64,000 nt of DNA, taken from assembly GCF_921293095.1 (NCBI RefSeq), contig NC_060259.1, forward strand, positions 5,580,001 to 5,644,000, read 5' to 3'. Source of the stretch: Ischnura elegans (taxonomy: Eukaryota; Arthropoda; Insecta; Odonata; Coenagrionidae). The position numbers were made by a program, and so were the translations under genes. Positions within the stretch are counted from its first letter, which is position 1. Each line of letters opens with the position of its first letter. A model generated the notes under the pieces. That model worked only from the letters and a program-made list of their open reading frames with translations. It was not told where the DNA came from and did not search any database. This document shows positions 4,303-48,519 of this stretch, in pieces.

Positions 4303-4580
4303 CCCAGCAAGGAAAAACTGATTTCCATCAGATTTAACACTGATTTCCAACAGGTTTGACGCACTGATTTCCTTCTCCTTTGAATCTGTTTTGAAAATTG
4401 AAACAGCTGGAAATCAGTAGGAGGACAGTGGGAAATCAGTTGTGAAGGTCCAACATGGCGGCTGTTTTCCTACTCATTTCCATGAATGTGGTTTGACTCT
4501 GGTTTCCACTGTTCAACAGATTTGAATCCGGTTTCCCCGTTTAAGCTTTTTCGAATCTGTTTTCCACCTTCATACCTATC
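4303..4580 (+). repeat. Left inverted-end array of element A
   Basis: Degenerate repeats of GATTTCCA, GAATCTG and GGAAATCAG words in both orientations, spaced about 15-30 bases. It includes ATGGCGGC at about 4455-4462. The mirror array is at 9560-9877. Confidence 0.65.
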
Positions 4581-4670
4581 TGAATCTTGTTTGCGACTCG
4601 ATTCTCACCTCCTATGACCTGCTGATGCATAAGTTAACTTCGGATACATGAGTTAACTGCTGATACCCGA

Positions 4671-4692
4671 GGCGGAAATAATTATTTCCGCC
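4671..4692. repeat. Perfect 22-bp palindrome in element A
   Basis: GGCGGAAATA joined directly to ATTATTTCCGCC reads identically on both strands. Two GAGTTAAC/AGTTAAC copies lie just upstream. It may be a protein-binding site or hairpin; function unknown. Confidence 0.6.
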
Positions 4693-6647
4693 AGGTCCAA
4701 GTTTCGCAGAGCTGCACTCAACCAACGTTTCTAACTTCACATGCTACATCTCTATCATTAATCTGGATGTAGACTCAGCTGAAAAAAGATGACAAAATAC
4801 AGCCTAACAAAATGAACTTCATGTAAGTCTCCCACCACAACAAAATAACACAGGCTCTATTAACGTATTTATTAAGAATGCACAAACTCTGTTGGAAGTA
4901 CATATTCAATTGAAAATACATAGTCATCTAATTTGGTAAACTTCTGCGGCAGAATACACTTAAAATCTCAATTTCATGCGTTAGAAATAATTTAGGGAAA
5001 CACAGAATTTACAGATGAAATCTCATTAGAAGGAGAGTTAGACAAACTAGTTGTGCTTTTTGTAATTGTTTATCAGTTCTTGAAAAGTCATCGAAAGGCA
5101 AAAGTTTTGCCAAGAGTAACAGAACAGTCACTGCACCAGAACAACAACAACTTGCATCAGATTCCACAATCTTGAATAGGGTTGTTCAAGCCTATCAGAA
5201 CGGTCTAAAAAAACGAATGTATATCACTTCTGATGTAATTTAATTTTGATTGGGATGAATGACAGATGCGTTGAAAAAGTAATGATGGAATTATTAGCAA
5301 TCAAAATTCGAACAATTTTAAACGCCGCCAAAAACGGTCGGCCATCTTGAAATAGAGGTGATGACGAAACAAGCCTGTACGGCTGGCCTGTGCCCTCGAT
5401 CGCTCGATGCCAAGCTGAGCACTCTGCATGCCGACTGGACATTTGCCAAGGTTATTCCTTATTTTGAAATGGCCTATGTTGTGCATGAAGCTTCCGGATG
5501 GATCAAGGCGACATAAAATCCATTATTCAAGTTAGGCAGGCAACGTATGTAATGTAATTGTTGACAGGAATTGAAAGTTTTGTATAGCTGCATTTGCAAG
5601 GAAACTACCTACGTGCAGTGAACTTTCATTTTGCCGCTAGTGCAAGTGAACAAAATTTGTGCCCTTAATGTACCCCTGAGTGAATTGATTGCATTTAGAC
5701 GATGAAGTAAAGAGTGAAGCGACAAGTGAAGTGAGTTGTGAATGTAACATCTTCGACGAAATTATTTATTTTTTCCATGCTGGTTCAATCAACCCTATAC
5801 ATTTCGATCTAAGGTATCTAACTATTGCGAAGGATATGTTTCATATTTGAGCTAGTTGTACTTAGAGGATACATCGAACGTATATTAATTTTCATTCGTT
5901 TGTTCGCCTCTAAGTTCTGTTTGATTTTATTACCTATTGCCAATTCATTTGGAGCATTCGTCAGTGTTTACATTTCACGAAATTCGTTGCGCTGTTGTTT
6001 GTTTTGGTCATATTTTGGTTACGGTAATAGTGAAAGTGAAATTCGAAGTTTTTTGATGTTACAGTAACTGGTTTAGCTAGTTTAATAATTTGTTTCAGCC
6101 TATTCATTTCATTGTCTTCGTAATGTCAATGTAAAATAACGTAAACTGATTCTAAGTCGTTAGTGATGAGTGGTAAGTGAGGTGTGGACAATCCTTACGA
6201 ACTTCAAGGAGTGCAAATTCTTTTGTGTGTGCAGAGTGATTGGAAAACCGATTGTCATGTTTTATTAGTGTTACATAATAGTGTTTTATATTTATTGTGA
6301 GCCAAGTTTTTTATTGAATCAGTTGATTTGGAATATACTGATTATACGTATCAAAAAGACAGCTCGTGAAATGTGTGCGTTGTAGTGCCATTTGTGATAT
6401 GATGAGCAATAAATATGTACAAGTAAGGGTAATTTTGCTTATTATTACTCTTATTAAAGGATAAATTTGGATTTTCTTTAAACACTGATCTGGCGGCAGA
6501 CGCTGGAGATCTTTAAAAAAAAGTAGAATAACCCTGCTGAGCCACTTCAAACACTGCAGTAGGGCATCTACAGGCTTGTGACGTCACACACCAATTCAAG
6601 ATGGAAGTAGGGCTTTTTGGCGTAACGTAAAATTTGTCACTGTTTAA

Positions 6648-8516
6648 GGGTGCGATTCATAGACGGCACTTTAGGCTAAAGTATACTTTAGCCGGGCTAA
6701 AGTCTGCTTTTTCCGTTTCATAAACGCACTTTAGAGGAAAAATGGCCGAATCGTCACTTTACCGTAAAGTGCCCAACCGGAGCTCACTTTAGGGCTAAAG
6801 TGTCCTTTACGGATGAATAAATATGGCTGCACCGGCTGTTATTGAAGTTGAAATATGAAGATATTTGGGTTACGGAAATGAATATGAACTAATTTTTTGG
6901 TGAGAACACAGCAGCAAACTGGCGCGTTTCAAGAAATAACCAGACAAGTAATATATGTCTTTTCCCTGAATATATATCGAGTCGGTATTGATGGAGATGA
7001 CCCAATTCTTATATTTTGAAGTTTAACTCTATCGGTCGTGTGATAATTACAACACAGTAAGTGGTTGAACAGGTTGGCATAATTTATGTTGATTTTATAT
7101 ACAAGTTAATTGTTAAGTTCTTAGGTTTTTTATACGTTCATATTCTAGAATTTTCCTTAAAGATACTTGAATATGATAGCAAAATTCTGTTTATGCATTG
7201 GCGTCAATAGCCTTCGTAAACAAAGACTTGATTTTCATATCGTTTGGCCAGCCAAATACTAGTTTCTACACCTTGTATTGCATTTTAAGCGTTTTCATTC
7301 AATATTTGCTTAATGTACTCTTTCCGTATGCCTCCATATCACGCTTAACATGTTTCTGTGATTGTGAAACTAGAGTCGAGTTTCTGTTTCGTTTTTCGAC
7401 ATATGCATGTTTACAATGATGATATAAGATCTCGTCATGAAAGGCAGCAATAAAAAGTAAAACGTACTTTCCTTCATAGCCATATTATCAGCAGCAAAGC
7501 AATGTTTCCTCGAGGATGTAGGATTGTTATGAAATGTTATTTACACAGCATCACAGACTTCACTGACATTTTCTACTGCAAAATTCGTGAATGGATACTC
7601 GGGTTAGGTATTCACATATGTCGAGGCATCTTTTAAAGTAGACAAAGAGATATTTATTGATATAAGTCCATTCTCACATTAAACATGTTTCATTGCGTGG
7701 CCATTCATTCATTGGTTTTGATGATATAGATATTCTTGACTGTACATTCTCGTCCATTTCTCTAGAATATATAACCCCTTAGGTCAACATTCCAAGAATT
7801 AAAATATTGGTAAGCACAAAAGAATTCAACAAACACCCATACCTCATTCAAAATACGCGTCCAACTGAGACAACCACTGATCGGTAAATCTTCAAATTAA
7901 TTGGTAGTTTCAAGTTAACGCGAGAGAATTTCACTATTTCACCCACCTTCAATGAACGTACACCATCAAACTTCGACTAACATGTAGTCCAAACAACCGA
8001 ATGCAGTTAATCATAGAAAATGATCATAAAATGACGTGAAAATATCAGCATTTGAATATTTACTTCGCTGGGAACATCGAAGGGCATTACCAATACACGA
8101 AGCTAATTAAAAGTGAGCTTTTATTCAGCCAACTCAGTCATTAACGTACAAAAAGCTAGTGGGGAAAAGCTTTCAATGACGCAGTATTCATTTACATTTG
8201 CTCATAATATGAGAAAACGAGAAAATACAGCTTAATAAATCTTAGCAAAATACAACACGAAAACCCAGTCGCCAGAAACATGTAAACAAGTACGCATTTA
8301 ATATCGTGTGTCATCTTTTTCTTCACTTTTTCGCAGCGTTCATTGCCAACACTCAAAAATTTCAATGCATGATCGAGACTTTAGGAGCTAAAGTTCCACT
8401 TTATAAAGTGAGATCCTTGGGACGACTCTGAAACGAAATTTAGCTAAAGTCTCACTTTACCGTAAAGAGAGACTTTGTAAAGTGAGCAATTTCAGTGTCG
8501 TCTATGAATCGCACCC
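6648..8516. mobile_element. Non-autonomous PIF/Harbinger-like element nested in A
   Basis: The ends are inverted copies: left GGGTGCGATTCATAGACG and, at right, its reverse complement ending in CCC, with one mismatch over about 24 bases. The element is flanked by a 3-bp direct repeat TAA (6645-6647 and 8517-8519), the target size typical of PIF/Harbinger. Subterminal regions are crowded with ACTTTA and TAAAGT words in alternating orientation, which could fold into hairpins or bind transposase. No transposase frame is visible in the 1.87 kb, so it would depend on a partner. Confidence 0.72.
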
Positions 8517-9559
8517 TAAAGCCTTCTCTAAACATGTACAATGAAGAAAATAGCATAATATTATTGTCATTGCTCCTTCTGAAGCACGATCTTTCGATTT
8601 CTTAAATAAAAAAAATATGGTGAACAACCCTATTATCGAGGAGCACAAATTTTTCCGTGATAAACAGAAAAATCACTACACTAGAAAATATTTCAGATGC
8701 CTTTACGAAAGAAAGACTTCTTTACGTGACTTATGAAAATAATTCTGGTTCAGAATTAAGCCAACGATATCTGTATGTTGCACTACAGAAACTTTCCATT
8801 AATGTTTAAATACATGAACACGGTCGTTTCACTTAGCACAAACAAACCAGCAAGATACACAATACTCTGAAAATCCTGGTAGGTTCTCTTCGGCGACGTA
8901 ACGCAAGTACATATTATACATATTGTACACAAAAATATTAGTAATCGCTCAAAATCTGTTGACACAAGATAAATTATTCAATGAAAACACAAAAGATCGA
9001 AATCACATCAGGCTTCCACTGTCGCTTGAAGACTGAAGAGATGCACGAATGGCTTAATTCAACGCTGCGGGAATTTAGCACTGGTTAAATAATACTGATA
9101 TGATTATTTTTTCTCCACGCCCTATTACTTTAGCACAAAACAGAACCACAAGCACGTAAACATTCAGAACCAAAGTTCAGAACGGAATCGGCGTATCGGC
9201 GTTGCTACTTTGGTTTGCTATCTTTTGTAGTTAGGTGGCAGCACTATGCCCGCTATATTTTTTTAAAAGGCGAAGTCGCAAAGTGAGGTTTAAACGTGCT
9301 TAAGCCGTATTAGCCACTTAAATTGCATGCCCGGTGAGCTCCAGCAGGTGAAATGATGCACAATACAAAATGTGGATGATGTACAGTAAATTTTTTTCAT
9401 CACCCGTGAATTTTTGCAAGACGGCAAGGTACATATTTCCTCTACGTCATTATTTTATTTCTGACCATGATTTTGAACTAATTATACTCATTGACACCTC
9501 AGAAGAAGTAATTTTCCAATCAACGCAGTCGTAAAGCCTGTGTGAGATAGGTTTTTATA

Positions 9560-9877
9560 AGACACTCATTACAAGAGAATTTCAAATTCATTCTACAATT
9601 CAACTCTGTTGGAAAGCACTTGTGGAAAACTCTTTCAAGCCAATAAATAAGGAAAAGAGTTTCAAATGACATTCAAGTCAGTGTCAATACAGTCCATGTG
9701 GAAGACGGCTGGAAACCAGTTACAATGGAAATGAGATTCAAATCACTTCCTTCCATTTCCTGTCCGCTGGAAACCAGTGGAAATCAGTGTCAAGACAGAG
9801 TCAAATCAGATTTTAAGGATTCAGATCAGATTCAAATGAGGTTCAAAACTGTTGGAAATCAGTTTTTCTTTCCTGGG
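9560..9877 (-). repeat. Right inverted-end array of element A
   Basis: Mirror of the array at 4303-4580: repeated GGAAATCAG, GGAAACCAG, TTCAAATGA and CAAATCAGA words. A 60-codon open frame across it is a by-product of the repeats. Confidence 0.62.
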
Positions 9878-10354
9878 TATGGGCTGTAGTTATAGTGCTG
9901 TTCTGGTTCTGCAGAGGAATGATAGCAGGGTTCCCACTCTACCTGAACAATGAAATTCACGGCTTTTTCCAGGTTTTCACGGTTATTTTTCAGGTTTTCA
10001 CGTTTTTTTCCCAGGTTTTCACGGTCTCAATTTCGCTAAATTCACGGTACGTTAATAAGCCAACAATAAGAAAATCACTGGCCGTATATCAACAGAAAAT
10101 TAACGTACGCGACAAACGCCGTGAATGTTAACGCCGCAATGAAAAGTGATATCTGTTATGACGTGATCTATCGTTTGCAAAATTCAGGGCCGATTAACGG
10201 ACCAGCCCAACCGCGCTCTTGCCTGGACGCCGAATACCCTTCGGACCTTCTTCCGTCCGGACACCCGAGGTCCTTTTTTAATTCCTCGCCGAGAGATTGT
10301 TTTTTGCGCACGTTGTTATTACTGCACACTAACCAAATTTCCCCCACCCCAATA

Positions 10355-14352: not shown

Positions 14353-14360
14353 GCTGTAAG

Positions 14361-17238: not shown

Positions 17239-17937
17239 GATAAATGACGAAAAATACAACTGATAGTGAAGACGGGAGTACAGATGATGACATGAGTGAT
17301 GTAGTAAAAGATATCCCCAGGCAAGAACAATTTATTTTACAGGAAAAAGCGCTATGAGTGGTCAACAAACGAGCCAAAGAGGAAAATTCGTATACCCTTC
17401 CATAACACCGTAACTCATAAACCTGGTTTGAAGGATTACATTACATCACTTCGTAGGGATATTGAGCCTCTTGATTATTAGTCTCAGATTTTTGATGAGA
17501 GAATTTTGCAATTGAATATGTGGGTACGATAAAGAAAAATTAAAGAGGCTAATGATTTTGTGCCATCCAAAGGACACGTAATGGGCTCTTCATTTTACGG
17601 ATTCTCGGCGAACAAGACCGTAATATCCAATCTCCCCAAAATATATAAGGCTGTTTGCTTAGTGTCAATTATGCACTACAAGGTAGGTGACGATATAGAG
17701 TCACGGAAACCAGTGGTAATTGCATTTTACTACACAAATAAGGGTGGCGTAGATACTTTCGACAAAATGTATTGTAGATACACATCCAGGAGGTTGCCAA
17801 TGGCAGTATTTCTCAGAATATTAAATACTTCCTTTGTCAACTCTTTTGTGCTTCAGAAGTCTGAGATAGATAAGAGAGATATGAGACTATTTAATTGTAT
17901 TAAATCAATGGTGGAGATATCATTAGACTCCATATAG
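17239..17937 (+). pseudogene. piggyBac transposase remnant
   Basis: An acidic N-terminal start (TTDSEDGSTDDDMSD, from ATG at 17244) leads into an YEWSTNEPKRKIRIPFHN stretch in a shifted frame. The part holding the first catalytic aspartates is missing. The C-terminal part is open at 17560-17937: GYxSANK-like NKTVISNLPK region, then KPVVIAFYYTNKGGVDTFDK, which contains the last catalytic Asp of the DDE core, and RRLPMAVFLRILN. Stops (for example at 17355) and the deletion make it inactive. It belongs to the piggyBac copy at 16382-23106. Confidence 0.82.
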
Positions 17938-18203
17938 GAAGGAGAATGTCAAATATAAGACTCTCGAGACAGGTAGGATAAATTACTATGCAAATTCTCC
18001 ATCTACCGTAGGAAGAGGCTGAAGAAGTTGAAAGGTTTGAAATGCATACAATATGTAGACTTTTCACGCCCCACATAAACACGGAAAACCTCTTTCTTAT
18101 TTTTCCAATGCAAAAAGCCTGTGTATGCTTTGGTGAAAAATTGTAATTTTGATCGCCTGCAGAATACATCAAGAAAAAGAATAGGTGGGATAAACTACAT
18201 ATT

Positions 18204-18545
18204 CAGGGAAAAATTTCTGCTGTGTAAGTCATTTTGAACTGTCATGTATCTGCTTTGTACCACTGATTTGTATGTGCTTTTGAACTACTGTGGAATTGAA
18301 ACACGGTACACAGCAGTTCATGACGTCATAGCATCGCTACCATGTCATCAACTCATTTGAAACATATTTTGAACTGCCTTGGATTTACATTGGAAACTGC
18401 TATGGGACTCATTTGGATTTAAATTTGGAAGTCGTTTGTGCCACTCGTTCATCCGTTTTGAAACTGATTTGTACCAGTTGGACACCCATTTGGAACTCAT
18501 TTGTACAACATGCCACCTCATTTGTAGCAGTTCAAGATGGCGTAC
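18204..18545 (+). repeat. Left inverted-end array of element B
   Basis: About 20 degenerate copies of CATTTGGAACTG/GTTTTGAACTG-type words. It ends at AAGATGGCG (18534-18542). The mirror array lies at about 22330-22767. Confidence 0.68.
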
Positions 18546-19357
18546 TCCATTTTCTTGAAGTTTATTTTAGTTTGTTTCGGATATATAGGCGAAATGACTA
18601 TTACGAATTGAAGTGCGGCAGTGCCGCCATTTCGCAATAGCTCCTTTGCTTTTTAAAGAAATAGTCATAAACAAAAGACCTTCAAGCTCGACAAGCTTAA
18701 CAAAAGTTTCGTGTTTTCATATTGCGGAGTGAGGGGTAAGTCACTTTGGTGGTCAAGAAAGTCCTTATCGAGAGCTTAATTCCGATCTTACGTGGTTGAT
18801 GTGGATCATTCAGTGTCCATTTTTGAGTGAAATGCCTTCGTTTCTGGAATTTTTTTCTTGTAAACCGTCATGTTAAATATCTGAAAATACAATGGGAAAT
18901 GCGAAAAAAGGCCCCAGACGGCACAGGAAGTTTTCGTACCTGAATACGAGGGTGGACCATCAAGATACAAAAATCGCGCTTAGGAAGTTACTAAAAAGGT
19001 TTTGTTTCTTTATTTCCTATAATGACGAAAAAAGATGCAAGAGGACTGGCAAATTCATATGCATCGATAAAATTGTATCTCATCGATAAAACTGTATTCG
19101 GTCTGGGACTATTTTCTTTCGCGGGTGGTGCCATCTGGTGTCATCGTGCCATATCCTCCTAGAAAGATCACATGTCTTCACAAGCTAGCACAAGCCGTTG
19201 GAGGTCGCGTCGTTTACGTAACGTCTTACCACATTTCAGGGATTTTTGTGGTTAAGTTTGTGAAAAATAGAGTGTCTGGTAATAGTGAAGTTTCCCTTAT
19301 TCTTTAATTTCATTCACTGGGCTTCAGAAACGTGTTTGTGAGATATTTTTGTTAAAA

Positions 19358-20155
19358 ATGCCTTTCGTGTGTTTATTGTCGGGATGACGTAATGGAAACT
19401 CCGGGACATGGTTCAAGGTTTTAGCTTTCCAAAAGATCCTCAGTTGAAGAAGAAGTGCATTTGGGCGATAAGAAGAAAACGTTTCACCCCTACGAAAAGC
19501 TGTGAGGTATGTACTCTTTCTAGCTGTAATTATTTGGATGTAATTTTAAGTTAGAAGTGGCTTCGGGATGTTGATGCATCAACATCCCGAACTATTCAGT
19601 ACTAAAAATGGTGATTGAAAATATTGTAGCAGCAATTCTTTTGAAAATTCTTGCATTTTAGTTGTCTTTTTTGTATTAATTCATTCGGTGAACGTGTGGT
19701 TAAAAGGAGAAACTAGGAATAAACTGCCAAGTTTATAGGATCGAATATTGCTTCTTAGCTTGCCCTATGGTGTATTACACGTCGGCTTTCTTCATTTCAA
19801 ATTATCTTATGCTATAGTGTAAAACAATAAAAATATCAGGCATACAAATATTTACTATATTTACGAGCCTAGTAATTTGATTACTCATGCAGAAATACCA
19901 AAAATTGGAAATGATTTGACCTAATAAGTTACATGGTATTTTATTATTTATTAATTTTAGGTGTGTGAGCTTCACATCGCACCATTGTGATATCAGAAAG
20001 TAATCTGTGGCCTTGGACGAGAAGACGAGGAGAAAATTCTTGCTGAATTGAAGGTGCCCAGATTGGAGGAAGGTACCATTGCTTCACTGTTACCTGTCGC
20101 CAAGAAGACAGACATTGTGGCAGAAGTGACATATTTGTGGATGTGGATTTGATTT
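19358..20155 (+). pseudogene. THAP-domain (transposase-like) pseudogene
   Basis: ATG at 19358 starts MPFVCLLSG, then TGA where the second zinc cysteine of a C2CH THAP finger is expected. After one frameshift the read is FPKDPQLKKKCIWAIRRKRF then TPTKSCE, ending at a GTATGT donor (after 19506). A TTTTAG acceptor (AG at 19959-19960) opens VCELHIAP, matching the VCSxHF end of THAP fingers, then a TGA, then PRLEEGTIASLLP, which resembles the AVPTIF-like box after many THAP domains. The exon frame ends near 20155. THAP fingers bind the ends of P-type DNA transposons. Two stops and a frameshift make it inactive. No catalytic domain was recognised downstream. Confidence 0.75.
19562..19591. repeat. 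Perfect 30-bp palindrome
   Basis: TTCGGGATGTTGATG is followed directly by its reverse complement. It lies in the intron between the two THAP exon remnants. Confidence 0.8.
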
Positions 20156-20587
20156 GTGCAAGTTGATGCTGTGATAGTGGACGTTCATCGGAGCAAGTAG
20201 TGAAGATAGTTTTTATGTATCGACCAGTCCTCTTTTAAATAATTTTTTATTCGAAAGAGAATAAGAGTAATTGTTTCGCTAAATTAGATGTGGGATAGAA
20301 GAGAAAATTGGAAATATTATTGTGGTTGACAATAGAAAATACATAATACAGACATTGTGGCAGAAGTGACATATTTGTGGATGTGGATTTGATTTGTGCA
20401 AGTTGATGCTGTGATAGTGGACGTTCAGCGGAGAAAGTATTGAAGATAGTTTTTATGTATCGACCAGTCCTCTTTTAAATAATTTTCTATTCGAAAGAGA
20501 ATAAGAGTAATTGTTTCGCTAAATTAGATGTGGCATAGAAGAGAAAATTGGAAATATTATTGTGGTTGACAATAGAAAATACATAAT
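20108..20587 (+). repeat. 240-bp tandem duplication
   Basis: Two head-to-tail copies (20108-20347 and 20348-20587), each starting ACAGACATTGTGGCAG, differing by only a few substitutions. The unit begins inside the THAP second exon, so the exon tail is duplicated. Confidence 0.9.
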
Positions 20588-21163
20588 ATATGTATTGTAT
20601 TTCTGTGGGTTTTTTCTTTCCTGCCTCTTTAAAATTTCTTATGGTGGTGACTTCATGCAAAGTAAGTATAAAATCGGAGGTGTGATCTAAGAGATACCAT
20701 GTTTTATTTTACAAGTGTTTATGCTGGTGATTTGGTAGGACTTTCATATGTTTAATAGGTTGATACATTTACTGCAGTGACCTAGAGACTTTTACTCATC
20801 CCAAATAATTTTTCAAATACTTTTGCGCCTGATATGGGTAAGTTTTAGTAGCTGAGACTGAACTATACGTTAATTTTTGCTTGCATTTTGATGAATTCGA
20901 TCATACTAATAGCAGATGTGTCAGCAATCCTGTTTCATCGGCAATTTTTATTTAAAAATTTTATTTCGTCAGGATTTAGGGTAAGCTTTTTAATGCTCGT
21001 GGGCTATGTGATGTCTTATTTAGTGTCAAAATTAATAAGAATTTACTCTTATTAACATCTCAAGGTTTCCAAGTAAGTACGAGCCACTTAAGAATGCTGG
21101 AGATGCGTGAATTAGCCTTGAGAACCTCATTTTTCGCAGTTATTTAAGTGGCCGAATAAGTTT

Positions 21164-21310
21164 TGTAAGTTCTCAATGGGTAAATAATACTATATCATGA
21201 ATTCTAATTACCATGAAAAACTCACAACCGACAAAAACTTTGTCGGTCGTGAGTCTTTCGTGGTAATTAGAATTCATGATATGGTGTTATTTACCTATTG
21301 AGAACTTACA
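21164..21310. repeat. Long hairpin, arms about 70 bp
   Basis: TGTAAGTTCTCAAT at left pairs with ATTGAGAACTTACA at right. The arms continue inward with few mismatches to ACCGACAAA / TTTGTCGGT around a 3-base centre. This could be an inserted foldback element or a fold in element B. Confidence 0.85.
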
Positions 21311-21796
21311 ATTCATAATGATTCGTATCAAGGTTCTCGCTACGGTCGGTAGCTATCGATTGTGTTGCGTTCGATACATTTTTCGATCGTGCGAGTTACG
21401 ATATATCTAATTTCGACCTAATCGATTGAAATTAGCCTGAGTGCCGTGTTCCTGCGCGCTTCGTATCCAATCGTACGTGCTTAGTAGCGGACATTCACAT
21501 GCTGCGTACGCGCTTCGTCGACAGGCCGCGAATGGAAATTATCCATTGACGAAAAGCGACGGAGCGGCACAGTATCCCCTTAGTCAATGGGTACTATGTA
21601 CATACGAATTAGATACGGAGGGTTCTGTGCCGTCTGGGGCCTTTCCGGGTAATCGAACTTGTCATCTTCGACATTGAAATATATTTTCGAAGGAGGGATT
21701 CATGGCGAAAAAATTCAGCCCTAAAATGCGGATCCAAATATGGACATAAACCATTTCCTAGGGATCGCGAAGACAATATACATCGGTATGTTTTAT

Positions 21797-21829
21797 CATA
21801 GAGTAAGTATATTATATACTTACTCTATG
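21797..21829. repeat. Hairpin with 15-bp perfect arms
   Basis: CATAGAGTAAGTATA, spacer TTA, then the exact reverse complement. Confidence 0.8.
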
Positions 21830-22329
21830 GTTTTATGTATATTAATCTATGCAAAATACTACTTTTCCGGTAGTATCAAAGAACGAAAGGAATGAAAGAA
21901 AAGGTTGCAAATATGCCGTAAAATTCACAATATTTAAAATTGCGAAGTATACTTTGAAAGTATAGACATTGAATTTTTACGATAATAATATACTTGGAAA
22001 CGCAAAAAAACGCGAGCGCTATGAATTTGTTATTGAATACCTTTATTATACGTAACCAAAATTCTCGGTACGTAGTGAAGATAATCTTGTCGCATTTCAA
22101 ATCGGACCCAAAAATACGATTTAAGCCACAAGGAAAATAGAATAATTTTTAAACTAATTCGAGTGATTATTTGGGAGTTCCGTTTCTATTAACTGACTTG
22201 CGATTATTTCTTATTAAACCACGTATGCATTTTTATTGCATATATGTATTAAAGAATTTTCGTTTTCTCGGCCAAACGTATCAGACTGAACCTGGTATGT
22301 TGGCGCGTAGAAGACAGTTCCAAAACAAA

Positions 22330-22767
22330 TGATGACGTTTATAAATCGCATGGATTTGTTCACAAAGAATTACAAACGTATGGAAAGCCGTAATACATGA
22401 ATCTTCTTAGTACACAACAGTTACAATACGAATGATGACGCCCGGATATCCTGTCATCTCGTTCAAAGGGAGTTCCAAATGAATTTTCTCCGTACACAGC
22501 AGTTACAATACGAATGATGACGTCTGGAAATCCTACCGAATCGTTCAAACGTAGTTCCAAATGAGTAGAAAGCAGTTCCAAACGAACACACTCTGTACAA
22601 AGGAGTTCCAAAGAGGATCACAAATGAGTTACAAACGTCTTCATATTTCTAATTTTTGGTACAAATGAGTGAAAATGAGTTTCACAGCAGTTCCAATGCA
22701 GATTTTGGTGTTCCAAAGCAGTTTCAAAAGGGTTCCAAAGCAGTTGCAAAGCAAAAAATTTTCCCTG
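22330..22767 (-). repeat. Right inverted-end array of element B
   Basis: Mirror of the left array: GAGTTCCAAATGAG, CAGTTCCAA and GAGTTACAAACG words. Near-repeats of TACACARCAGTTACAATACGAATGA-type units at 22410-22530 show local duplication. Confidence 0.66.
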
Positions 22768-23110
22768 AGTGGTTTCATACTACTTAGCCTTCCAACTTTA
22801 ACATTTAAGGCAATATTTTTAAACCTGGTGAAATATTGATACATAAATATGATAATTATAACTCAAAGTGTTTTTGGCATCAGTTTTTTGATCCTGCTTC
22901 AAATAACAATTTTTACTGGCAAATTGGTTTGTATTGGGAATGTAAAAATTTTAATATAAGTTTTAGAATAGTTAAGCATTTAAAGAAAAATTAAACAAAA
23001 CAATAAAAATGGAGCTGCAACATTATATGAATTTTTGACTTATTGCGGTCTCCCAGACCGCACGTCACTGGTAGTGTAACAAGAATTGCACGTCACTGAT
23101 TAAGGGTTAA

Positions 23111-27167: not shown

Positions 27168-28957
27168 CCACTGTTCCTGAAAAATTCTTATAAGAAATTG
27201 GTCATTTTTCTTACAAGAAAAGTTTTATAAGAAGCTTTCTTATAAAAAATTTCTTATAACTATCAATTACAAAATGTTATTTATAAGAAATTTTCCGATG
27301 GAAATATTTATTATAAATATCATATCATTATGCTTAAAACACTTCCCCAAACTTCTATAAAAAGCTACATAAGATTAACATCCTTACTGAGAATATAAAG
27401 TTAGCATTATACCTAATAAAATGTAGATGCCTATATCTGGTATACAGCAAACCTAATGATTTACTATGTACCAAATGTAGATGCCTATCATTAGTGTGCA
27501 TCAAGCAAGGACATTCAAGCTCTGTAAAGTTCACACCTGACTTGCCAGACAAGGCGAGATACCATAGAGGTCCTTCAGGGCATGGGTTCTGCATAGGGTT
27601 AACGTCCCCACATGCTAAAAGAAACTAAAAGGATGAAACCAACAATAGCCTAAAGTGATGGACTGATAATAGAACACAACTTTGGCAATCGCTACATAAT
27701 GAAAGATATAGGAATTGCAACATGGAATATGGTTTAACCTGGAAAATTGAAGAAGCAAATGAAATAAAATTCAAGTTTGACTTAGCATACTTCAAGAAAT
27801 GAGATGGGAAGGAGAAGGAAAAATTGATAAATCATATGCATATGAGCAATGTTTATTTAAGATACCAGGGAGAATGGCCTGTAAGTGCACTCTCTAATAG
27901 ATAATGAAAATATTGAATAGATAAGGAAAATAGAATTTGATGCCATTGGAGAAAAGATACCTAGAATATGGCTAAAAATAAGGGCAAGATTTAGGGAAAT
28001 TAATAGAAATCACAGAAACACTGATTGAGAATAATAGTTTATGTATTTTCCGTAAAATAATAACTGTGCAGACGTTTTAGGTTTACTCATACAAATTCAT
28101 TCTCATTCTCTTCAGAGACGACTAAATTACTCATTTCGTCTCTTGAAATACTGCTTTCATTAACAATTTCACTTATTATTGATATCCCACAATCTGAAAG
28201 AATATATCTATCTAAATTAATGATGAAAAGTTTAAAATTCCATGAAACTGTCTGTTTAAGGCAACGTGATTTTAGGAATGCCAGTTTTGTAAGACTTACC
28301 AAATGAGGTCAATGCCTTTTTTATTAGAAGCACACGACTTATTTCATGCAACTGCTATCACAAAAACATAGTGAATGATTCACATATAAAAGCAATCCCT
28401 AGCAACCTAGCAACCAAACAAGGTTTCCATGTGAACTGCATCCTGCAACGTATGCAATCGTTGTACACATACTTTCTGTTTATTCATGGCCTACATCAAA
28501 CTTCCATCGATTAAATAACCTGTAGACTCGAAAAACAGATTTTATAAGTCTACAATTTTTTGTGTGCTCTCAGGGATATTCCTTAAAATATATACTAAAA
28601 AGTCGCATAAACGAAGCTTCAGCTTCTTGGGACCATTTATGTCAAACACCTGCTGAAAATGCCAGAAAATTAGCAGAACACTACTAAACAAAGAGCTGTA
28701 CATAATTTCAAACAAAATCTTATAAGAATTCCTTAAAGAATAATCAATTGCCAACATATGTTACGGTGAATTAAACGCGTGCCGGATAAAAACCTGAAAG
28801 GTATGCGACCCGCGCAACATTATTGCAGAATTCTATAAGAAATGCAGAGTTCTTATAAGAATTTCTGTTAGAATTATAAAATCCTATAGGAGTTTCTGTA
28901 AGAGTTATAAAATCCTATAAGAATTTCTCTGAGACTTATAAGAAATTTCCAATAGGG
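27168..28957. mobile_element. Element D: repeat-array inverted ends, inside gypsy-0
   Basis: Both ends are arrays of TTCTTATAAGAAATT-type words, strongly self-complementary (left 27180-27300, right about 28830-28950). The outermost bases read CCACTGTTCCTG at left and, inverted, CCCTATTGG at right, so the exact ends are less certain than in A or F. The insertion splits gypsy-0 between HAETKE and ERARHNN. The interior carries a non-LTR endonuclease fragment (27700-28030) and otherwise nothing recognisable. Confidence 0.62.
27700..28030 (+). pseudogene. Non-LTR retrotransposon endonuclease fragment
   Basis: Frameshifted remains of an APE-type endonuclease N-terminus: IGIATWNMV, then PGKLKKQMK, then LQEMRWEGEGKID with a stop replacing one residue, and SYAYEQCLFKIPG. 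The WN(V) and QE(I/M)RW motifs are those of the family's metal-binding region. It may be the 5' part of the same element family as the RT at 37060-37760. It lies within element D. Confidence 0.62.
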
Positions 28958-37760: not shown

Positions 37761-37762
37761 TA

Positions 37763-39418: not shown

Positions 39419-39433
39419 TAGAGCATTCCACCA

Positions 39434-39643: not shown

Positions 39644-39697
39644 GTCAGTAAACACCCAGTGCGTGTGTTGCGGAGTAATTACTGTGTGTCAGATACG

Positions 39698-40685
39698 ATG
39701 GTGAACCCTCTGGTAAAAACTGCCCTATTCAGGCGCATGGATCCTTTTAGCCCGGACGAGGAAGATTTTGTATCGTACGCCGAACGTTTTGAGCAGTATT
39801 TTCTACTGAAAGGGATAACGCAAGAGGAAGTGAAGGTTCCGATGTTTATAACATTTTGTGGGGCATCAACATATACACTGTTGAAAAACATGTTGTTCCC
39901 AAAAAAGCCTACGGAACAGACATTTGCGAAATTGGTGGCTATTCTTACGACTCGTTATGCCCCAAAACGACTGACTATTGCGGAATGGTGCAATTTTCAT
40001 ACCCGTTCACAACAGACCAGTGAAAACGTAAAAGAGTTCATCATAGCCCTTAAGAAACTTGCAGAATTTTGTGATTTCGGAGATTTTTTGAACGATGCTT
40101 TGAGGGATAGGCTTGTTTGTGGTGTAGAATCAGCAGTGATCAGACAGAGATTACTTCTGGAGAGTAAATTAACGTTTGAGCAGGCATGCATCATCGCCAA
40201 CGATTTGGAGCTGGCACAGAAGAACTCGATTTTTGACGGGGTTGACAAGTTCTCGAATCTGGAAGTTGGGGCAGTTTATAGGGGAGCCCCAAACACTAAG
40301 CAGAACTTCCACCGCCAACCAGATGCTGGTTTGAGCCGCAGGAGAGAGGACATTCCAGCACAACCGGGACCATGTCAAGAGAACGGGCAACGGACCAATT
40401 GGTATCAGAGGAATGCTGTGTGTCAACGGTGCGGAAGATTCCACAAAGAGGATTCCTGCCCCCCCCCAGGATTGGGAATGCTTTAGGTGCCATGGGAGGG
40501 GGCACGCTTCCAGAATATGTCGAAGCAGGGAGTTTGTGAGGTGTACTCAGACGATTGGGAGATCGGTCTGTCAGATGACATTTCCCACTCACAAAACACC
40601 CATCCCACCAAACCAAGGTCCGAGTCGCAATGCATTTACTTGCCTGCTGTTAAATAGGTATCTGGAACTTCACCACTGTTTGTAA
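39698..40685 (+). pseudogene. Gypsy-1 gag
   Basis: ATG at 39698 opens a gag with a capsid-like region (EEDFVSYAERFEQYFLLKGI, LTTRYAPKRLTIAEWCNF, FIIALKKLAEFCDFG, LRDRLVCGVESAVIRQRLL). Two zinc knuckles follow in different frames: CQRCGRFHKEDSC up to 40455 and CFRCHGRGHASRIC at about 40478. The frame change coincides with a run of nine or more C at 40457, so it is probably a homopolymer indel. The frame ends at 40685, just before protease. Confidence 0.82.
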
Positions 40686-40687
40686 AT

Positions 40688-41999
40688 ATGTATGTGAATG
40701 GAGTTTTATTAGCTTTTGAGGTAGATAGTGGTGCTAGTGTGTCTTTAGTATCTGAAGAGACATATCACTGGTATCTCAACGGTGCGAAACTCCACAAGTG
40801 TATCCTATCCTTGAAATCAGTCACTGGTGACCAAATTAATGTCAAAGGAAAAATTGAAGTTAGGGTATCTTGGGTCAGTGGGAATGCTAGTAAGAGCCAC
40901 ACATTAGAATTAGTTGTTGTGTCTTCCACTGTGCGAGTAAGGCCTCTCATGGGTCGCCCCTGGCTGGATATTTTGTCCCCAGGATGGAGAAAGAGGCTAC
41001 TTTCTTGTTGTGTTTCAAATGAGGGGCACCTTGATGTGGATGATAACAATATTTTCAAGTTTGAGTCAAATACAACGTTGGAAGACAATTGTTATAAATC
41101 GCTGTTGAAGGACAGCAAATTGCTATCCAGTTATGCATGCAAATATCTAAATGTTTTCAGCGGGAAATATTCAAACATGATCAAGCAGTTTAAGGCAAAT
41201 CTTGTGATTAGGGAGAATGCTTTCCCAATTTTTCATAGGCCATACTCAGTACCTTTTGCCTTAAAAGGGGAAGTTCGTAAGCAATTGGAAGAAATGGTAA
41301 CCAGTGGGGTTCTAAGACCTGTGAAACACTCAGAATGGGCATCCCCAATAGTGTGTGTTCCAAAAGCAGACGGAGGTGTTAGGATTTGTGTTGACTTTAA
41401 GGTGACCTTCAATAGGGTTTTGGTCACAGATTTCTATCCCTAGCCCAAATTAGATGATGTGTTTGGATCATTGGCTGGGGGGACTGTATTTTGTACGCTA
41501 GACCCCCAAAATGCATATTTGCAGTTAGGTGTTGGACTAGAATCTCAGAAGTACCTTACCATCAACACTGATGATGGACTTGATCAATTTACCCGCCTAC
41601 CCTTTGGCATCTCTAGTGCTCCAGGTATTTTTCAGTCTGTAATGCGGGAAATTGTCAAGGGTTTGCCCATGGTTACATGTTATTTGGATGACTTATTAAT
41701 TTCAGGGAAAGTTTCAAAAGATTGCCAAGAAAGGGTGGAAATGGTGCTGAACAGGCTAAATGAATATAATGTGAGGGTAAATATGAATAAATGTAAATGG
41801 TTTTGTGAGTCTGTGGATAATTTAGGTCATACAATAAGTGCAAAAGGTGTTTGTCCAATATCACACAAAATGAAGGCCATACTGGAGGCTAAGGTTCCCA
41901 AAGATGTATCACAAGTGAGATCCTTTGTGGGAATGTTAAATTTTTATCATCGCTTCCTGCCTAACCTTTCTAGCCTACTATTTCTACTTACAAGCCTAA
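40688..41999 (+). pseudogene. Gypsy-1 protease and reverse transcriptase
   Basis: Aspartic protease at the start (AFEVDSGASVSLV, later PLMGRPWL), then RT: GVLRPVKHSEWASPIV, CVPKADGGVRICVDFK, then a TAG at 41441-41443 in place of the Leu in the usual YPLPK. In the same frame CTLDPQNAYLQLGV (first catalytic Asp), LPFGISSAPGIFQ and the catalytic CYLDDLLIS follow. NKCKWF, NLGH and LNFYHRFLPNLSSLL end the RT, where R1 begins. One in-frame stop and the loss of RNase H inactivate it. Confidence 0.88.
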
Positions 42000-42604
42000 G
42001 TATTTCACGCTTTTAGATTTTTAAATGACGATATCTATTTTTCGCGATTAAATGAAAAGTGAAAATTTTCAAGCGCGCGGAAACGAGACGCGTAAGTATG
42101 AATGTCGGGAAATCTCTCTCCGTGTGGCGTATTTCTGGTTCCCGCTGCCGCCCTGTGAGGTGACCTTGAGGCGAGTTGAGCGCTGATAGGACGCAGGCTG
42201 CTAGCGGGTAGCTGAGTACCCTGCTGGCTGGTAGCGCTTGGCTTAAATAAGGATTATTAATATCTTATCAAATGAAGAAAACTTTCCGACCTTAGCCAGT
42301 TTTAATAAGTGATTATTAAGACATGTTTCCCTGAGCTCTGCGCCTCATGCATGCATTGGTAACATCAGAAGACGTATAACTCCTATCTTCTCGTATAGAA
42401 ACTAGGTCCCTGTGACGTCACGTGGAGTGGCATCGCATGGGCGCCAATCTGGCCCTTTTCAAATGAGGATAAAAATGGACCATTGCCATTCGTCTAAACC
42501 GGTATTTATAAAACGAAATAATTTGTATATTATGAATACAGTAATGGTGGGTAACGAATCGCAATCAATGCCTTTCGTTTTATTTGATGAAGGAAACTAC
42601 CCTA
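42000..42604 (+). mobile_element. Repeat R1, copy 1
   Basis: About 605 bases from GTATTTCACGC to GAAACTACCCTA, found again at 52935-53448 plus 60022-60111. It separates the gypsy-1 RT from its integrase. CCTAA stands on both sides (41995-41999 and 42601-42605 overlap), a possible target duplication. No inverted ends and no coding motif were seen. It contains a TGACGTCA-like site (GTGACGTCACG) and GCGCCAATCTGGCC. Class unknown. Confidence 0.6.
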
Positions 42605-43604
42605 ATGTCCCATTTTTCAGACAAAGATATGATATCTCCCTGGAAAATGGATGTTTGTTAATGGGGTCAAAGGTGATCATACCTCTCAAATTGCAGAACG
42701 ACATGCTGAATTTATTGCATGGGTCACAAACAGGAATTGTGAGAATGAAGTCCCTTCCTCGTTCATTACGCTGGTGGCCAAATGTTAACAGGGATATTGA
42801 GGAGAAGGTGAAAAATTGTGAAGCATGCCAAATTGTAAATTTTCAACCAGACTGTTTGCAAAAGGCATCATGGCCTAGGGTTGATATTTGGGGCAGGTTG
42901 GATGTTGATTTTTTTGTTATGCAAAAGAAATATTTCCTGGTTATTGTTGATAGTGAGAGTAAGTGGATTGAAGTGTACCCTATGGCAAATGGAACTGATG
43001 CTAGGAAAGTATGTGAAAACCTGAGTACATTATTTAGCACTTTTGGTTATCCATCACAGATAGTCTCTGATAATGGCCCCCCATTCAACTCAAAGCTGTT
43101 TGTTGATTTCTGCTCCCATAGAGGCATTGAGGTATTTAAGTCCCCAGAGTACCATCCCCAATCAAATGGTATTGCAGAGAGAGCTGTTCAAACCATTTAA
43201 AGGTTACTTGCCAAGAAGTTGAATACAACACCAGGTGCCCTTAGTGACAAAAACATTCACTCAGTCCTTGGCAAAATTTTACTTGCCTATCGTACTACAC
43301 CTTTGGCAACAGGTGAGATAAGCCCTTCAGAAAAGATGTTCAAGTATAAACCTCGCACCCTCTTGTCATTAATTAAACCACCCTCTAATAGTCTCACCTT
43401 TCCAAGCTCTAGATACCCAGAATACAAGGTGGGGGAAGCTGTTTTGGTAAAAATTAGACCAGGCAGGGTGCCTGTAAAAGGTGTAATTGGGAAGAGGGTC
43501 AGTGTGGTTACTTACAGGGTGTACATTGGAAGCCAATATCGGTACATGCACATGAACCAATTGAAACGCTTGCCACCTACAAAAATTATCCCTAAAGCTG
43601 GTGA
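42605..43604 (+). pseudogene. Gypsy-1 integrase and pol C-terminus
   Basis: Open from 42412 with gypsy similarity starting at VPFFRQRYDISLENGCLL. Features: HGSQTGIVRMK, RWWPNVNRDIEEKVKNCEAC (second half of the HHCC zinc site), the catalytic DDE core with DVDFFV, IVSDNGPPFNSK and SPEYHPQSNGIAERAVQ, then TAA at 43198-43200. The same frame continues RLLAKKLNTTPG, LLAYRTTPLATGEISP and YPEYKVGEAVLVKI to HMNQLKRLPP, where element F interrupts. After F the tail continues at 45031-45262 (proline-rich) and, beyond element C, ends KAPQWLDL. Confidence 0.85.
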
Positions 43605-45030
43605 CCCACAGTCAAATTTACATCAAAATTTTTGGACAAAAATTTTGATGCAACTGGACAGGGGGTGTCCCACGATGCATCTCATTTTGATCAAAAACAA
43701 ACGAAAGACGATATTTATGTAAACAAATTTGGAAACTTGTGGAGGTGAAGTATTCTGTCTTTTTTAGCAGGCGAAGTTGTCTGAACAGGCCTCTTGAACA
43801 TAAAAGAGGTGAAAAAAGAAAACAGAAGGAATGCTGAACTTGGCCTTGGCTGGAAAGGGGGTATGAATGCGTTGGAATAAGCATGCTAAACATGTTGGAG
43901 AAGGAGTTGGTCTCCGATGTTCCCGTATATTATCAATAATAATTGACGATAAGTGAGAATATTTTCATGTCCCTTATTAGCAAGGTTGAGGGCAGAATAA
44001 AACGCCAGGATACAAACGTAAGGCAGTTTATTCCCACGAGGAAAATGTTATTAATAAATGATGGACATTGTGGTTGAGGAGATGTTATGAATAGTGCTGT
44101 AAGCGTGCATTTAAATCACATTTTTCTCTCCTAATCTAGCAGTTGCTAAAATAAGGTCCTTATCCTATAATCATAGCAATAGAAATGGGCAGCTGTAGTG
44201 TTTCACAGGTATAATCGTCAGTTCATATTAGTCATTTCTCCAGCTGCTAGCTCGCACATTGTATGCCCTCCACAAAGCTAACCTGTAGAATTCGGCCTCG
44301 ATACCTTAATTAAATCTTTTATTCTTTCCAAAACATCCCTCCTTGTATTGCGATTCTAAAGATTGCTTCCTTCTTATTAAAGATCAACTAATTATTACGG
44401 ATTTCCTAGTTGAGAGTTTCCATCGCCTATCATAAAGACCAATTTTTGCTCATATTTACTTTAAGGACCACACCAGGCAATGAAATAGACGATCACGAAC
44501 ATATATATATATTTGAAATAATGTTTTGTGAATTCACTCCGTGGTATGGTGATATTATAAATTTAAAACTAAACCTTTTAGTATTCCATACAGTACTAAT
44601 GAAAAAACTCAACCGGCTTCGATCTTTTCAAGTCCTTATATAGAGGTTTACGATTAAGATAACGACCAGAAAAGGTGGAAACCGGTTGGGTTTTTAATGC
44701 ATACTGTGTGGAATACAACAAAGTTTATTTTTAAGTCCATAAGATACATAATTATTACTTAAAACACTCATGCAGACGATAAATAAGTTTAACCTATTTG
44801 GTCTGTGTGACAGCGCTTGGCGATGCTTTTTTGTCAAAGGCCCTGTGATTGGTTGGTTTCATCCAATTGGATGAAAATTTAGAACCTGTCCTATCCATTT
44901 GTACAAATTGGTGATTTGTACAAACGATAGGACCAAAAGCCAGTTGGATGAAATTTTGACCGTGGGACAGGGTGCGCGTCAGTTGCATCAAATTTTGATG
45001 CAAATATTTTGATGTAAATTTGACCGTGGG
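43605..45030. mobile_element. Element F: repeat-array inverted ends, inside gypsy-1
   Basis: Ends CCCACAGTCAAATTTACATC and, inverted, CCCACGGTCAAATTTACATC, continuing AAAAT with only one or two mismatches over 30 bases. Inward lie repeats of CATCAAAATTTTGATGCAAC, itself nearly palindromic, and a second internal GTCCCACG copy at each end. 1.43 kb, no recognisable protein. It splits the gypsy-1 pol tail. Confidence 0.75.
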
Positions 45031-45262
45031 ACATTGGCTTAAGCCAAATGTTTTCCCTTTCCACTTGTTAGCAGATCCTGATGACTCAGCTGTGGATGCA
45101 GCACCTCTATCGTCAATGGTGCAGACTCCCTTGACCATTTCCCCTCGACCCAGCCCATCTTATCCTGCCTCTGTCCCAACTGCTGAAATGGTAATACCCA
45201 CGGCTAACCAATCCTCTAGGAATACAGGTCCAAAACTTGGCCGCTCCAACAGACCATCCAAC

Positions 45263-48200
45263 CCCAACAGCACACATTTGGATATACATATGTATTTATA
45301 TTGTATTTTCATGGGTCACATACAAATGTATTTTTGTTATGTATTACATATGTAATACTTATGTATTATTGAATGTATTTCCTTTGTATTCATACATATG
45401 TAAAAGTGGTACGTGTTACATGATAAATACATTTGTATTTTTGTGTATTTTTGAAATTTGAATACTTATGTAAATGTGGTCAAAAATACAAATGTAAATA
45501 TCGTGTAACACGTACCACTTTTACATAAGTATGAATACAGAGGAAATACATATGTAAATGTGGTCAAAAATACACAAAATATACATTATGTATATTTCCT
45601 GTAATTTTTGAGAGGTGGATTTTCGTGGCGTCTTGTGAAATGTTCATAAACATTTTTTCCAGAAATAATATGTTCACTGCAAACGCCAGATTTCCTCATT
45701 TCAATGATCATTCATCCATTCGACCCAGAAAGCCTAAAAATAAATCATATACTGATCGATGTGAGCAAGGGTAGTATGGCGGCCATATTTATGTTAATTT
45801 GTAAATGCACGCGAAATACAGACGTATTACATATGTAAAATTCAGTTTCCATCCGCGAAATATACACATGGAAAATGGTTCACAATACATGAAAAATACA
45901 AAAAATAGTTCTTGCACAGAGCAAAAGTAGAAGCGAAGTTTAATTTTTTAAACAATATTTTAAATTAACTGTTTAAACAAAAATTAAATTCTCAATTCTG
46001 CGTCTCCACTGTCGCAATAAGCTAGGGAAGTGAGTGGGAGTGATAATCTCGTTAACAGTTAAGCTCGGCATTTCGTTCGAGACTACGAGAACGTCGAGAA
46101 CGTGCTGTAGGAGGAACTCCGGCTACTGATGTATAGTTAATTTTATATTTGTTTGTATTATTATACGTATTGGAAGAATTGACATAGTGTTTTAATCCTC
46201 GATAACCGGTGCGTGTGGATGGTGTGCTCAACCCGAAGCTATGTTTTGCTAGAAATGTGCTTCAATCCCGCACGTTATTGCGATTCGTGCAAGCCAGCTC
46301 CAACAGTTTCCTGTCACTGGATAATTAAGGTAGGGTATGATTTATCTTTAATTATATTGTACGCCTACATAGACTACATTAATTATGTTATTTTAGTATA
46401 TTTGGATACAACTATTGGCGCAATGTGTTGACCACATAAATATTGCGCCAATAGAGGTAATTATTTTGTTTATGTTTGGCTATTGTTTCCCTTTTTTGTT
46501 GAGTTATGTATCGAGGAGACTGGTCTCCATTGAAGTTATATGGTAAAACATAGTAATGTCAATCTTGTACGCATAAATTAATAGATTATACGTCGTATAG
46601 TAATTCCGTGCTTCGCGGCTGAAGTTACATTTTTTTCTTCTCTTAATTAAGAGCAGAAAAAATTGTTTAAAGGAATGTTTTCGATCACGTGTAAGTTGTT
46701 TTATCGCTGTTTATTACCACAACCTACTGTATTGTAGTTCTTGCATTCCTTGTTATCCTATGCTTTAGTCATAACATCTTTGACCGTAGACTTACCAGCG
46801 TAGCCTTGTCACTAATAGATTCCTCGAGGTTCCGAGACGTTTTGCCCACTACTTCTAATTATTTAACGAACAAGAAGTATTGGTCGTGTAATATCGGTTC
46901 CCTTAAAGCTAAGTGTAATATTTCTTTCATCTTGAAATGCAGTCAATCAAGGTGCATTTCGTCATTATTATTATTAACACAAGATAAATACGTAATTTTC
47001 ATGCGAAAGTTCGTAATTATATGTAAGAAAGAGGTGCGTATGGGCCAAATTAATTAATTATAATTTTATTTTCATGCTCTTTCGCGCATACCCAGGAGGC
47101 GACGATGTAAATAGCTTGGCCTGGACAAGAGGAGAATGGATTACGGAAAAAGCGACGAAGCAAAGCCATAAGACCATGTGGAATTGTTAATACCGAGGTA
47201 AGGTTTGAGGGAAATATTTTTTTTATCCATAATGGAGAGGTTTCTTAAAGTTAAGCCTGAAATTATCGGTTGTATGAAATTTATGTGTTTGAAAATTTGA
47301 TATCACAAGTTTATATTTTTTCTGTGTGAATCATCCGCTACTAAATCATGGTACTAATATATTAGTATCATGTTCTAAATAAGCATACCAATGGATACAC
47401 TTTTTCCTAGTTAATTTATATTTAAAAGTAGTCATATGATCTTTTCTCATATTTATCATTCTTCTTAATAGAAAGGCTATTAATTTTGTAAAATGAAAGC
47501 ATATCCCCAAAATATATGATTTCTCAAAGGATAAGGTCAAATCTGTGCTAGCTGGGACCTCGGCATAATTGGTAAATGAAAAAATTTAAAACTTATGTCT
47601 GGAATCTAGCAGAGAAGCCAAACTTTCATTTGCATTCAGAATACAGAATTAGTACTAAAATTACAGACTTCACAGAATACTGACTGCCTATATGAATTGA
47701 AAAAAAATAAAATTGAAAGGCCTTGAGCTCCTATTCAGATCTTACAAAAAGATATATATTTTTGCATGACTTTTAAACTTGACTTCTTCTTTTCTCCTTT
47801 CAGGAAGTGGCTTATGGTGCAAAGTTGGTTTCCTGAATTCAGGTTTCTTCTTGTGCAATGGGTTACAATGCTTGTTCCGTGCTAATATTTTTTTACTACT
47901 TTCCAACTCAAACCATTGTTTGTACTTGATTTATCTTTGTGCCATTTTTTTAAACTAAGTTTCACCTACTGTTTGCTGGCCCTTAATGCTTGTTGGCAAT
48001 ATTCATGGCCACACTTGTTCTTTGTGTGTATTATTTTATTTTTCTCTTTGAATAAATGTTTTATTATCTGTATGTTCTGGTTTCCTTATATTTATTCATC
48101 CGTTTGATCCATATTGATATTAAGTGGATGTGGGTCAGAAAATCAATATGTATAATTCGTGTATGAGGGCCTGCAGATACATATGTATATTACATGTAAG

Positions 48201-48519
48201 GATATTCAGATTTCCAATTTGTAATACGCACGTATACATACATCCTGAGGGACTTTTGAGCCACTTTTACGTGAAATATACAGACGTAATACGATTGTAT
48301 TCCATTGTATACATATGTATAATTCATGTATGGGTATTCAGATTTCCAATTTGTAATACGCACGTATACATACATCCATAGGGACTTTTGAACCACTTTT
48401 ACGTGAAATATACCGATGTAATACGATCGTATTCCATCTTATACATATGTATTTGGTCACATATTTTTTGTGTATTATTGATGTAATACAGATGTAATAC
48501 AAATGCCGTGTTATCTGGG
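45263..48519. mobile_element. Element C: repeat-array inverted ends, inside gypsy-1
   Basis: Left end CCCAACAGCACACATTTG and inverted right end CCCAGATAACACGGCATTTG. Each continues for 300-400 bases as arrays of TACATATGTATT, GTAATAC and ACAAATGTATTT words. ATGGCGGCC lies just inside the left array (45776-45784). The 2.5 kb interior holds possible exon-like pieces with GTAAGG (47198) or GTAGGG (46330) donors but no recognised domain. It is inserted between RPSNP and KAPQWLDL of gypsy-1 pol. Confidence 0.7.
48181..48444 (+). repeat. 132-bp tandem duplication in the right array of C
   Basis: TATTCAGATTTCCAATTTG and its surroundings recur at a spacing of 132 bases, with a few substitutions. Confidence 0.8.

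What the first reader, a model, noticed from the sequence alone, without database searches (positions are those of the whole stretch)
4303..48519. Five elements with inverted ends built from short degenerate repeat arrays
Elements A (4303-9877), B (18204-22767), D (27168-28957), F (43605-45030) and C (45263-48519) share one plan: a short conserved outer end, mostly CCCA or CAGG, followed inward by an array of up to a few hundred bases of a 10-16 base word in opposite orientation at each end. The word differs in each: CTGATTTCCA (A), CATTTGGAACTG (B), TTCTTATAAGAA (D), CATCAAAATTTTGATG (F), TACATATGTATT (C). Arrays are seen directly; that they form one superfamily with changing internal binding sites is inference. 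Such ends could be multiple transposase sites that change with the enzyme.
Basis: partly seen in the sequence, partly recalled or inferred. Interest (0 to 1): 0.85.

Follow-up and report, generated by a model that had tools for sequence, protein, structure and literature searches.

The report
Jumping-gene families with mismatched end repeats
Four of the five elements pointed out, plus one hidden inside another, look like gene-less copies of one known kind of cut-and-paste jumping gene (animal CACTA type) that share their outermost bases and cutting style but mostly carry different short repeated words just inside the ends; the fifth belongs to another known kind.

Summary
Largely real. The window lies in a 1.72-Gb eukaryotic genome, so true ends were read from other copies. 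A, B, C and D are repeat families with exact ends and 2-bp target duplications of free sequence: A 19 of 20 fetched copies, B 4 of 4, C 10 of 10, D 18 of 23 end pairs; chance about 0.07. Ends: CCCAG (A), CTCAG (B), CCCC/CCCAG (C), CCCTA (D). B is a composite hiding a further element, X (18913-21638; CCCAGACGGCACAG; 2-bp duplications in 2 of 2 copies). C-rich ends plus 2-bp duplications match published animal TRC elements of the CACTA superfamily. The genome has Transposase_21 genes, not linked to these ends; exact D ends bracket two 13.9-kb stretches, one of which, sampled, holds a transposase-like frame that Pfam did not confirm. Words differ by family: 11-bp asymmetric (A, B), palindromes (C, D), none clear in X. 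D copies carry 3-15 words in the left arm around a constant core. F is different: other ends, 3-bp TWA duplications in 7 of 10 copies, no array.

The parts
4303..9877 (.). Element A: canonical ~2.1-kb non-coding element (4303-5177 and 8632-9877) interrupted by an insertion; ends CCCAGCAAGGAAAAACTGATTTCC and inverted CCCAGGAAAGAAAAACTGATTTCC; TSD TA
   Evidence: 20 further copies fetched, 18 of them 2062-2125 bp; 2-bp duplication in 19 of 20 plus the window copy
4316..4602 (+). Left subterminal array of A, 11-bp period, CTGATTTCCA/CTGATTTGAA-type words
9577..9864 (-). Right subterminal array of A, same words inverted
5178..8631 (.). 3454-bp insertion in the window copy of A; ends AGGGTTGTTCA, TSD AT; not part of A
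   Evidence: absent from the 20 other A copies read
18202..22769 (.). Outer element B (about 1.83 kb without X): 18202-18912 and 21641-22769; family end CTCAGGGAAAAA, window left end mutated to TTCAGGG, flanks TA/TG
   Evidence: both ends of 4 copies and 6 further right ends
18913..21638 (.). Hidden element X inside B; perfect 14-bp ends CCCAGACGGCACAG; TSD GC; no clear array
   Evidence: second copy on C11 with TSD CA
27168..28957 (.). Element D; family end CCCTATTGGAAATTTCTTATAAG at both sides; arms of TTCTTATAAGAA palindromes; window left end decayed, own TSD not readable (AT/TT); inserted in a Gypsy-like RT frame
43596..45039 (.). Element F, PIF/Harbinger type: ends AGCCGATGTCCCACGG-like, TSD TAA; no array; inserted in the Gypsy element that also holds C
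45262..48519 (.). Element C; left end CCCCAACAGCAC, right end inverted CCCAGATAACAC; arms of ATACATATGTAT-type palindromes; TSD AA
   Evidence: 10 fetched copies, 2-bp duplication in 10 of 10

Best explanation
A, B, C, D and the hidden X are non-autonomous DNA transposons of the CACTA (EnSpm) superfamily in its animal TRC form, with C[C/T]C termini and free-sequence 2-bp target duplications. SHOWN: exact ends; 2-bp duplications; multicopy status; one empty site (A in X); host Gypsy frame restored on removal of C; no recognisable coding capacity in the window copies; variable number of words in D arms around a constant core; Transposase_21 genes in the genome. INFERRED: an element-encoded transposase cuts at the short conserved terminus, and an element-encoded DNA-binding function (like plant TNPA) binds several copies of the family's own inner word to bring the ends together, so that termini stay fixed across families while the words diverge and arrays grow and shrink. 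F is a PIF/Harbinger-type element and not part of the group.
For: Empty site. CCC ends, 2-bp repeats and Transposase_21 define animal TRC elements (PMC1636069, abstract and passages; PMC4298943, passages). 26 Transposase_21 matches over cut-off, open frames up to 882 aa. Exact D ends 318 times, reversed control 0; two listed inverted pairs span 13,949 and 13,929 bp; one of five 400-bp samples of the C3 one is open for 133 aa, 46% identical over 97% to an Ixodes scapularis hypothetical protein, and has a CxxC and GFVPDYMHC; C(2)C is listed for the CACTA-Mirage-Chapaev-Transib clade (PMC12730594, passages). Arrays bound by TNPA and diverging between families are described in plants (PMC2613891, passages).
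Against: B ends in CTC, not CCC. X has no clear array. Pfam gave no Transposase_21 match for the 133-aa frame or its two Ixodes relatives (only Clarin-2 E 0.11 and DUF1258 E 0.063, both below cut-off). None of the 26 Transposase_21 matches was tied to these ends; sampling around one found none. 5 of 23 D pairs and 1 of 20 A copies lack the duplication, as do window B and D. That the 13.9-kb stretches are single elements rests on their equal length and ends; their flanks were not read. No binding protein was identified.
Confidence: 0.78

Rival explanations
1. A, B, C, D and X belong to two or more superfamilies that happen to make 2-bp duplications (for example PIF/Harbinger-related groups), and the shared C-rich terminus is convergent.
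For: Harbinger-related groups with 0, 2 or 3-bp duplications exist (PMC12730594, passages). B ends in CTC, X lacks a clear array. Only D has a candidate transposase, not confirmed by Pfam.
Against: Free-sequence 2-bp duplications and C[C/T]C ends in all five, as published for TRC elements; A and B also share the 11-bp period.
Confidence: 0.15
2. The inner words are not protein sites but by-products of slippage or promoter/hairpin sequence that happens to accumulate near ends.
For: D arms vary strongly in length and word number between copies, and D and C words are palindromes able to pair; X does without an array.
Against: Words are at both ends and rare in the D core (0-1 in 22 copies), are inverted between ends in A and B, and resemble the TNPA-bound repeats of plant CACTA elements.
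Confidence: 0.2
3. One reading: all five, F included, form one superfamily.
For: F has CCCAC..GTGGG near its ends.
Against: In 10 of 10 fetched F copies GCCGATGT lies outside CCC at both ends; TWA duplications in 7 of 10; the Gypsy frame is restored with TAA; no array.
Confidence: 0.02

Closest known systems
Animal TRC elements of the CACTA/EnSpm superfamily (SmTRC1; Aedes and Tribolium TRC; Spongebob / EnSpm-4N1_HM)
   Same: Termini CCC (Aedes CCCAGTCAAC, Tribolium CCCTAGTAGCACC, Hydra CCCAGCCAACATTGAC) and 2-bp duplications (passages); Transposase_21 genes present in this genome
   Different: Window copies are non-coding; B ends in CTC; the passages seen describe one internal repeat motif in SmTRC1 but no subterminal arrays
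Plant CACTA elements En/Spm, Tam1, Tgm
   Same: Short conserved terminus plus subterminal word arrays, including palindrome-forming ones, that differ between families (passages)
   Different: Plant termini are CACTA with 3-bp duplications; a word-binding protein is known there and not shown here
PIF/Harbinger (for F)
   Same: 3-bp TWA duplications and an inverted AGCCGATG terminus; the TWA rule is recalled, 3 bp is in the passages
   Different: No transposase linked to F; classification rests on ends and duplications only

Membership tests
CACTA/EnSpm, animal TRC type (A, B, C, D, X) | Termini beginning CCC | tested here: inconclusive
   Met by A, C, D, X in genome copies; B begins CTC
CACTA/EnSpm, animal TRC type (A, B, C, D, X) | 2-bp target duplications without fixed sequence | tested here: met
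   A 19 of 20, B 4 of 4, C 10 of 10, D 18 of 23, X 2 of 2
CACTA/EnSpm, animal TRC type (D) | Transposase_21 / CACTA-type transposase between the ends of an autonomous relative | tested here: inconclusive
   133-aa frame with CxxC in a 13.9-kb D-ended stretch; no Pfam Transposase_21 match
CACTA/EnSpm, animal TRC type (A, B, C, X) | CACTA-type transposase between the ends of an autonomous relative | not tested
   A-end and X-end pattern searches did not complete; B and C ends were not searched as patterns
CACTA/EnSpm (plant definition) | Subterminal repeats bound by an element-encoded protein | tested here: inconclusive
   Repeats present in A, B, C, D, not clear in X; binding not testable here
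PIF/Harbinger (F) | 3-bp TWA target duplication | tested here: met
   7 of 10 copies exact TAA or TTA, and TAA in the window copy
PIF/Harbinger (F) | Harbinger-type transposase in an autonomous relative | not tested
   No search made

The most novel reading that the evidence does not exclude
In this one genome at least four co-resident CACTA/TRC families keep the same kind of cut end but have each adopted a different multi-site recognition code (11-bp asymmetric, helix-phased words in A and B; 12-bp palindromes in C and D), read by rapidly diverging element-encoded binding proteins that prevent cross-mobilisation, while X has shed the array.
Probability: 0.35. Interest if true: 0.55.

Novelty: new member of a known kind. 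Interest (0 to 1): 0.35.

Why it matters
Diverging subterminal words under a fixed terminus are described for plant CACTA elements. Here the same design appears in several co-resident animal-type families, with word number varying between copies and long D-ended candidates present, so how a transposon changes its binding code could be tested within one genome. For annotation it turns five loosely bounded repeats into exact families, finds a sixth element (X), and removes F from the group.

Tried and rejected
Pfam scan of 103 of the 122 ORFs of 50 aa or more that overlap the elements: six weak matches, none a transposase. Six-frame read-through of the five elements: no family at E 0.01 or better. 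hAT for B (CAGGG): no 8-bp duplication in the four copies; the end is CTCAGGG with 2 bp. TTAA elements (piggyBac, Kolobok) for A, B, C, D: rejected by the duplications. Linking the Transposase_21 gene at C6:12736319 to ends by sampling (20 x 45 bases, then 266 and 361 bases): no such ends seen, only a tandem repeat and sequence without an array. Window D's own duplication could not be read. In one search, 9 of 19 A copies were aligned in the wrong orientation, so its divergences are not used. Plasmid collection search with B: no match.
Full report

Observation. The end words are enriched well above background in A, B and D and at C's left end, weakly at C's right end, and not convincingly in F. 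A and B share an 11-bp period at both ends (0 of 500 shuffles reach it in each of four arms), with the word inverted between the ends. The D word is a palindrome and the C word nearly one.

A. Of 160 candidates 40 were scored and listed. The 20 best beyond the window were fetched whole. Eighteen of 20 are 2062-2125 bp, the others 3052 and 3484 bp. Nineteen of 20, and the window copy, have identical 2-bp flanks of varied sequence. The window copy is longer because a 3454-bp element with ends AGGGTTGTTCA and duplication AT sits at 5178-8631. One A copy on C11 lies inside a copy of element X; window X shows the same site empty with a single CA.

D. Of 791 candidates 40 were scored; 30 loci were read, the window included. 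The family end is CCCTATTGGAAATTTCTTATAAG at both sides. Of 23 end pairs in the 29 other loci, 18 match at 2 bp, none at 3 and one at 4 (TATA). The exact 23-mer occurs 318 times in the genome, the reversed control 0 times. In 22 copies the left arm is 105-337 bp with 3-15 words, the right arm 228-431 bp with 3-8 words, the core 1326-1391 bp with 0-1 word. The window copy has a decayed left end and flanks AT/TT.

C. Of 768 candidates 40 were scored; 30 of the 40, window included, match over the whole element, the other 29 at 90-97%. Ten forward full-length copies were chosen for end snippets.

B and X. Within B, 18913-21638 is an independent element, X, with perfect 14-bp ends and duplication GC; a second copy on C11 has CA. 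The outer B is about 1.83 kb. Of 524 candidates 40 were scored; four copies besides the window had both ends listed. All four have CTCAGGG at both ends and 2-bp duplications (CA, TA, CA, TA), and six of six further right ends also read CTCAGGG. The window copy reads TTCAGGG on the left with flanks TA/TG. X shows no clear array: its left end has no 11-bp period (375 of 500 shuffles reach it), its right end a weak one (5 of 500).

F. Of 1525 candidates 40 were scored. Ten forward copies were read at both ends: in 10 of 10 the sequence GCCGATGT continues outside CCC at both ends, and 7 of 10 have exact TAA or TTA flanks; the others read TCA/TTA, TTA/TGG and TAA/AAT (longer flanks of five). With these ends window F has TAA on both sides, and joining its flanks restores the Gypsy frame; joining those of C does so too. 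F is filed apart as PIF/Harbinger type by ends and duplication only; the TWA rule is recalled.

Identity. Animal TRC elements have CCC termini and 2-bp repeats: in SmTRC1, 7 of 14 copies; Aedes CCCAGTCAAC; Tribolium CCCTAGTAGCACC (PMC1636069, abstract and passages). Spongebob of Hydra, CCCAGCCAACATTGAC, was assigned to this type on the same grounds (PMC4298943, passages). The genome holds 26 Transposase_21 matches over the curated cut-off among 44 candidates, open frames up to 882 aa. None was tied to these ends: the A and X pattern searches did not complete, and sampling around one gene found nothing.

A candidate link for D. Only part of the 318 places of the exact D end was listed. Two listed inverted pairs, on C3 and C2, span 13,949 and 13,929 bp; that they are two copies of one element rests on their equal length, and their flanks were not read. 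Five 400-bp samples of the C3 one were read. Four show no long frame; one (C3:27233300-27233699) is open throughout for 133 aa. It is 46% identical over 97% to one Ixodes scapularis hypothetical protein and 45% over 77% to another, and all three share CxxC and GFVPDYMHC. C(2)C and H(3-4)H motifs are listed for the CACTA-Mirage-Chapaev-Transib clade (PMC12730594, passages); that DYMHC-LLG is typical of CACTA transposases is recall. Pfam gave no Transposase_21 match to the frame or to its relatives. The link is suggestive, not proved.

How it most likely works. The transposase cuts at the short conserved terminus and inserts with a 2-bp stagger (the duplications are shown, the enzyme is inferred). 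The inner words are most likely sites for an element-encoded protein, as TNPA binds the subterminal repeats of En/Spm; in plants the words differ between families while terminus and transposase are conserved (PMC2613891, passages). That step is inference here, and X argues that an array is not always needed.

Novelty. Six paper searches listed no paper that by title or abstract describes such arrays in animal TRC elements, but only listings and passages of four papers were seen, so absence from print is not claimed.

Noticed in passing
5178-8631: 3454-bp insertion in A with ends AGGGTTGTTCA and TSD AT; it contains a 27-nt inverted pair at 6644-6670 / 8494-8520. Family not identified.
   Followed up: partly
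20108-20588: 240-bp unit repeated twice (97% matches) inside X; the C11 copy of X has its A insertion at this repeat.
   Followed up: partly
about 4440-4470 and 18530-18570: AACATGGCGGC in the left arm of A and AAGATGGCG in the left arm of B resemble YY1 sites (recalled), perhaps promoter remnants of the autonomous elements.
   Followed up: no
17533-17934: piggyBac-type transposase remnant (DDE_Tnp_1_7, E 0.00015, 21.6 bits, just under the cut-off of 22.4).
   Followed up: no
39644-48550: One Gypsy-like element holds both F and C; another Gypsy-like RT is interrupted by D.
   Followed up: partly
54551-58756: Long open Gypsy-like pol frame of 1402 aa on the minus strand, with a gag-like frame beside it at 58666-59604.
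   Followed up: no
3395-3934: Minus-strand frame that looks like cytidine deaminase (motif recalled; the scan has one such member, E 4.6e-17), perhaps a host exon.
   Followed up: no
C2:121870606-121897998 of the window genome: About 18 exact D ends within 28 kb, and tandem or nested D copies at C10, C12, C19: D inserts into or beside D.
   Followed up: no
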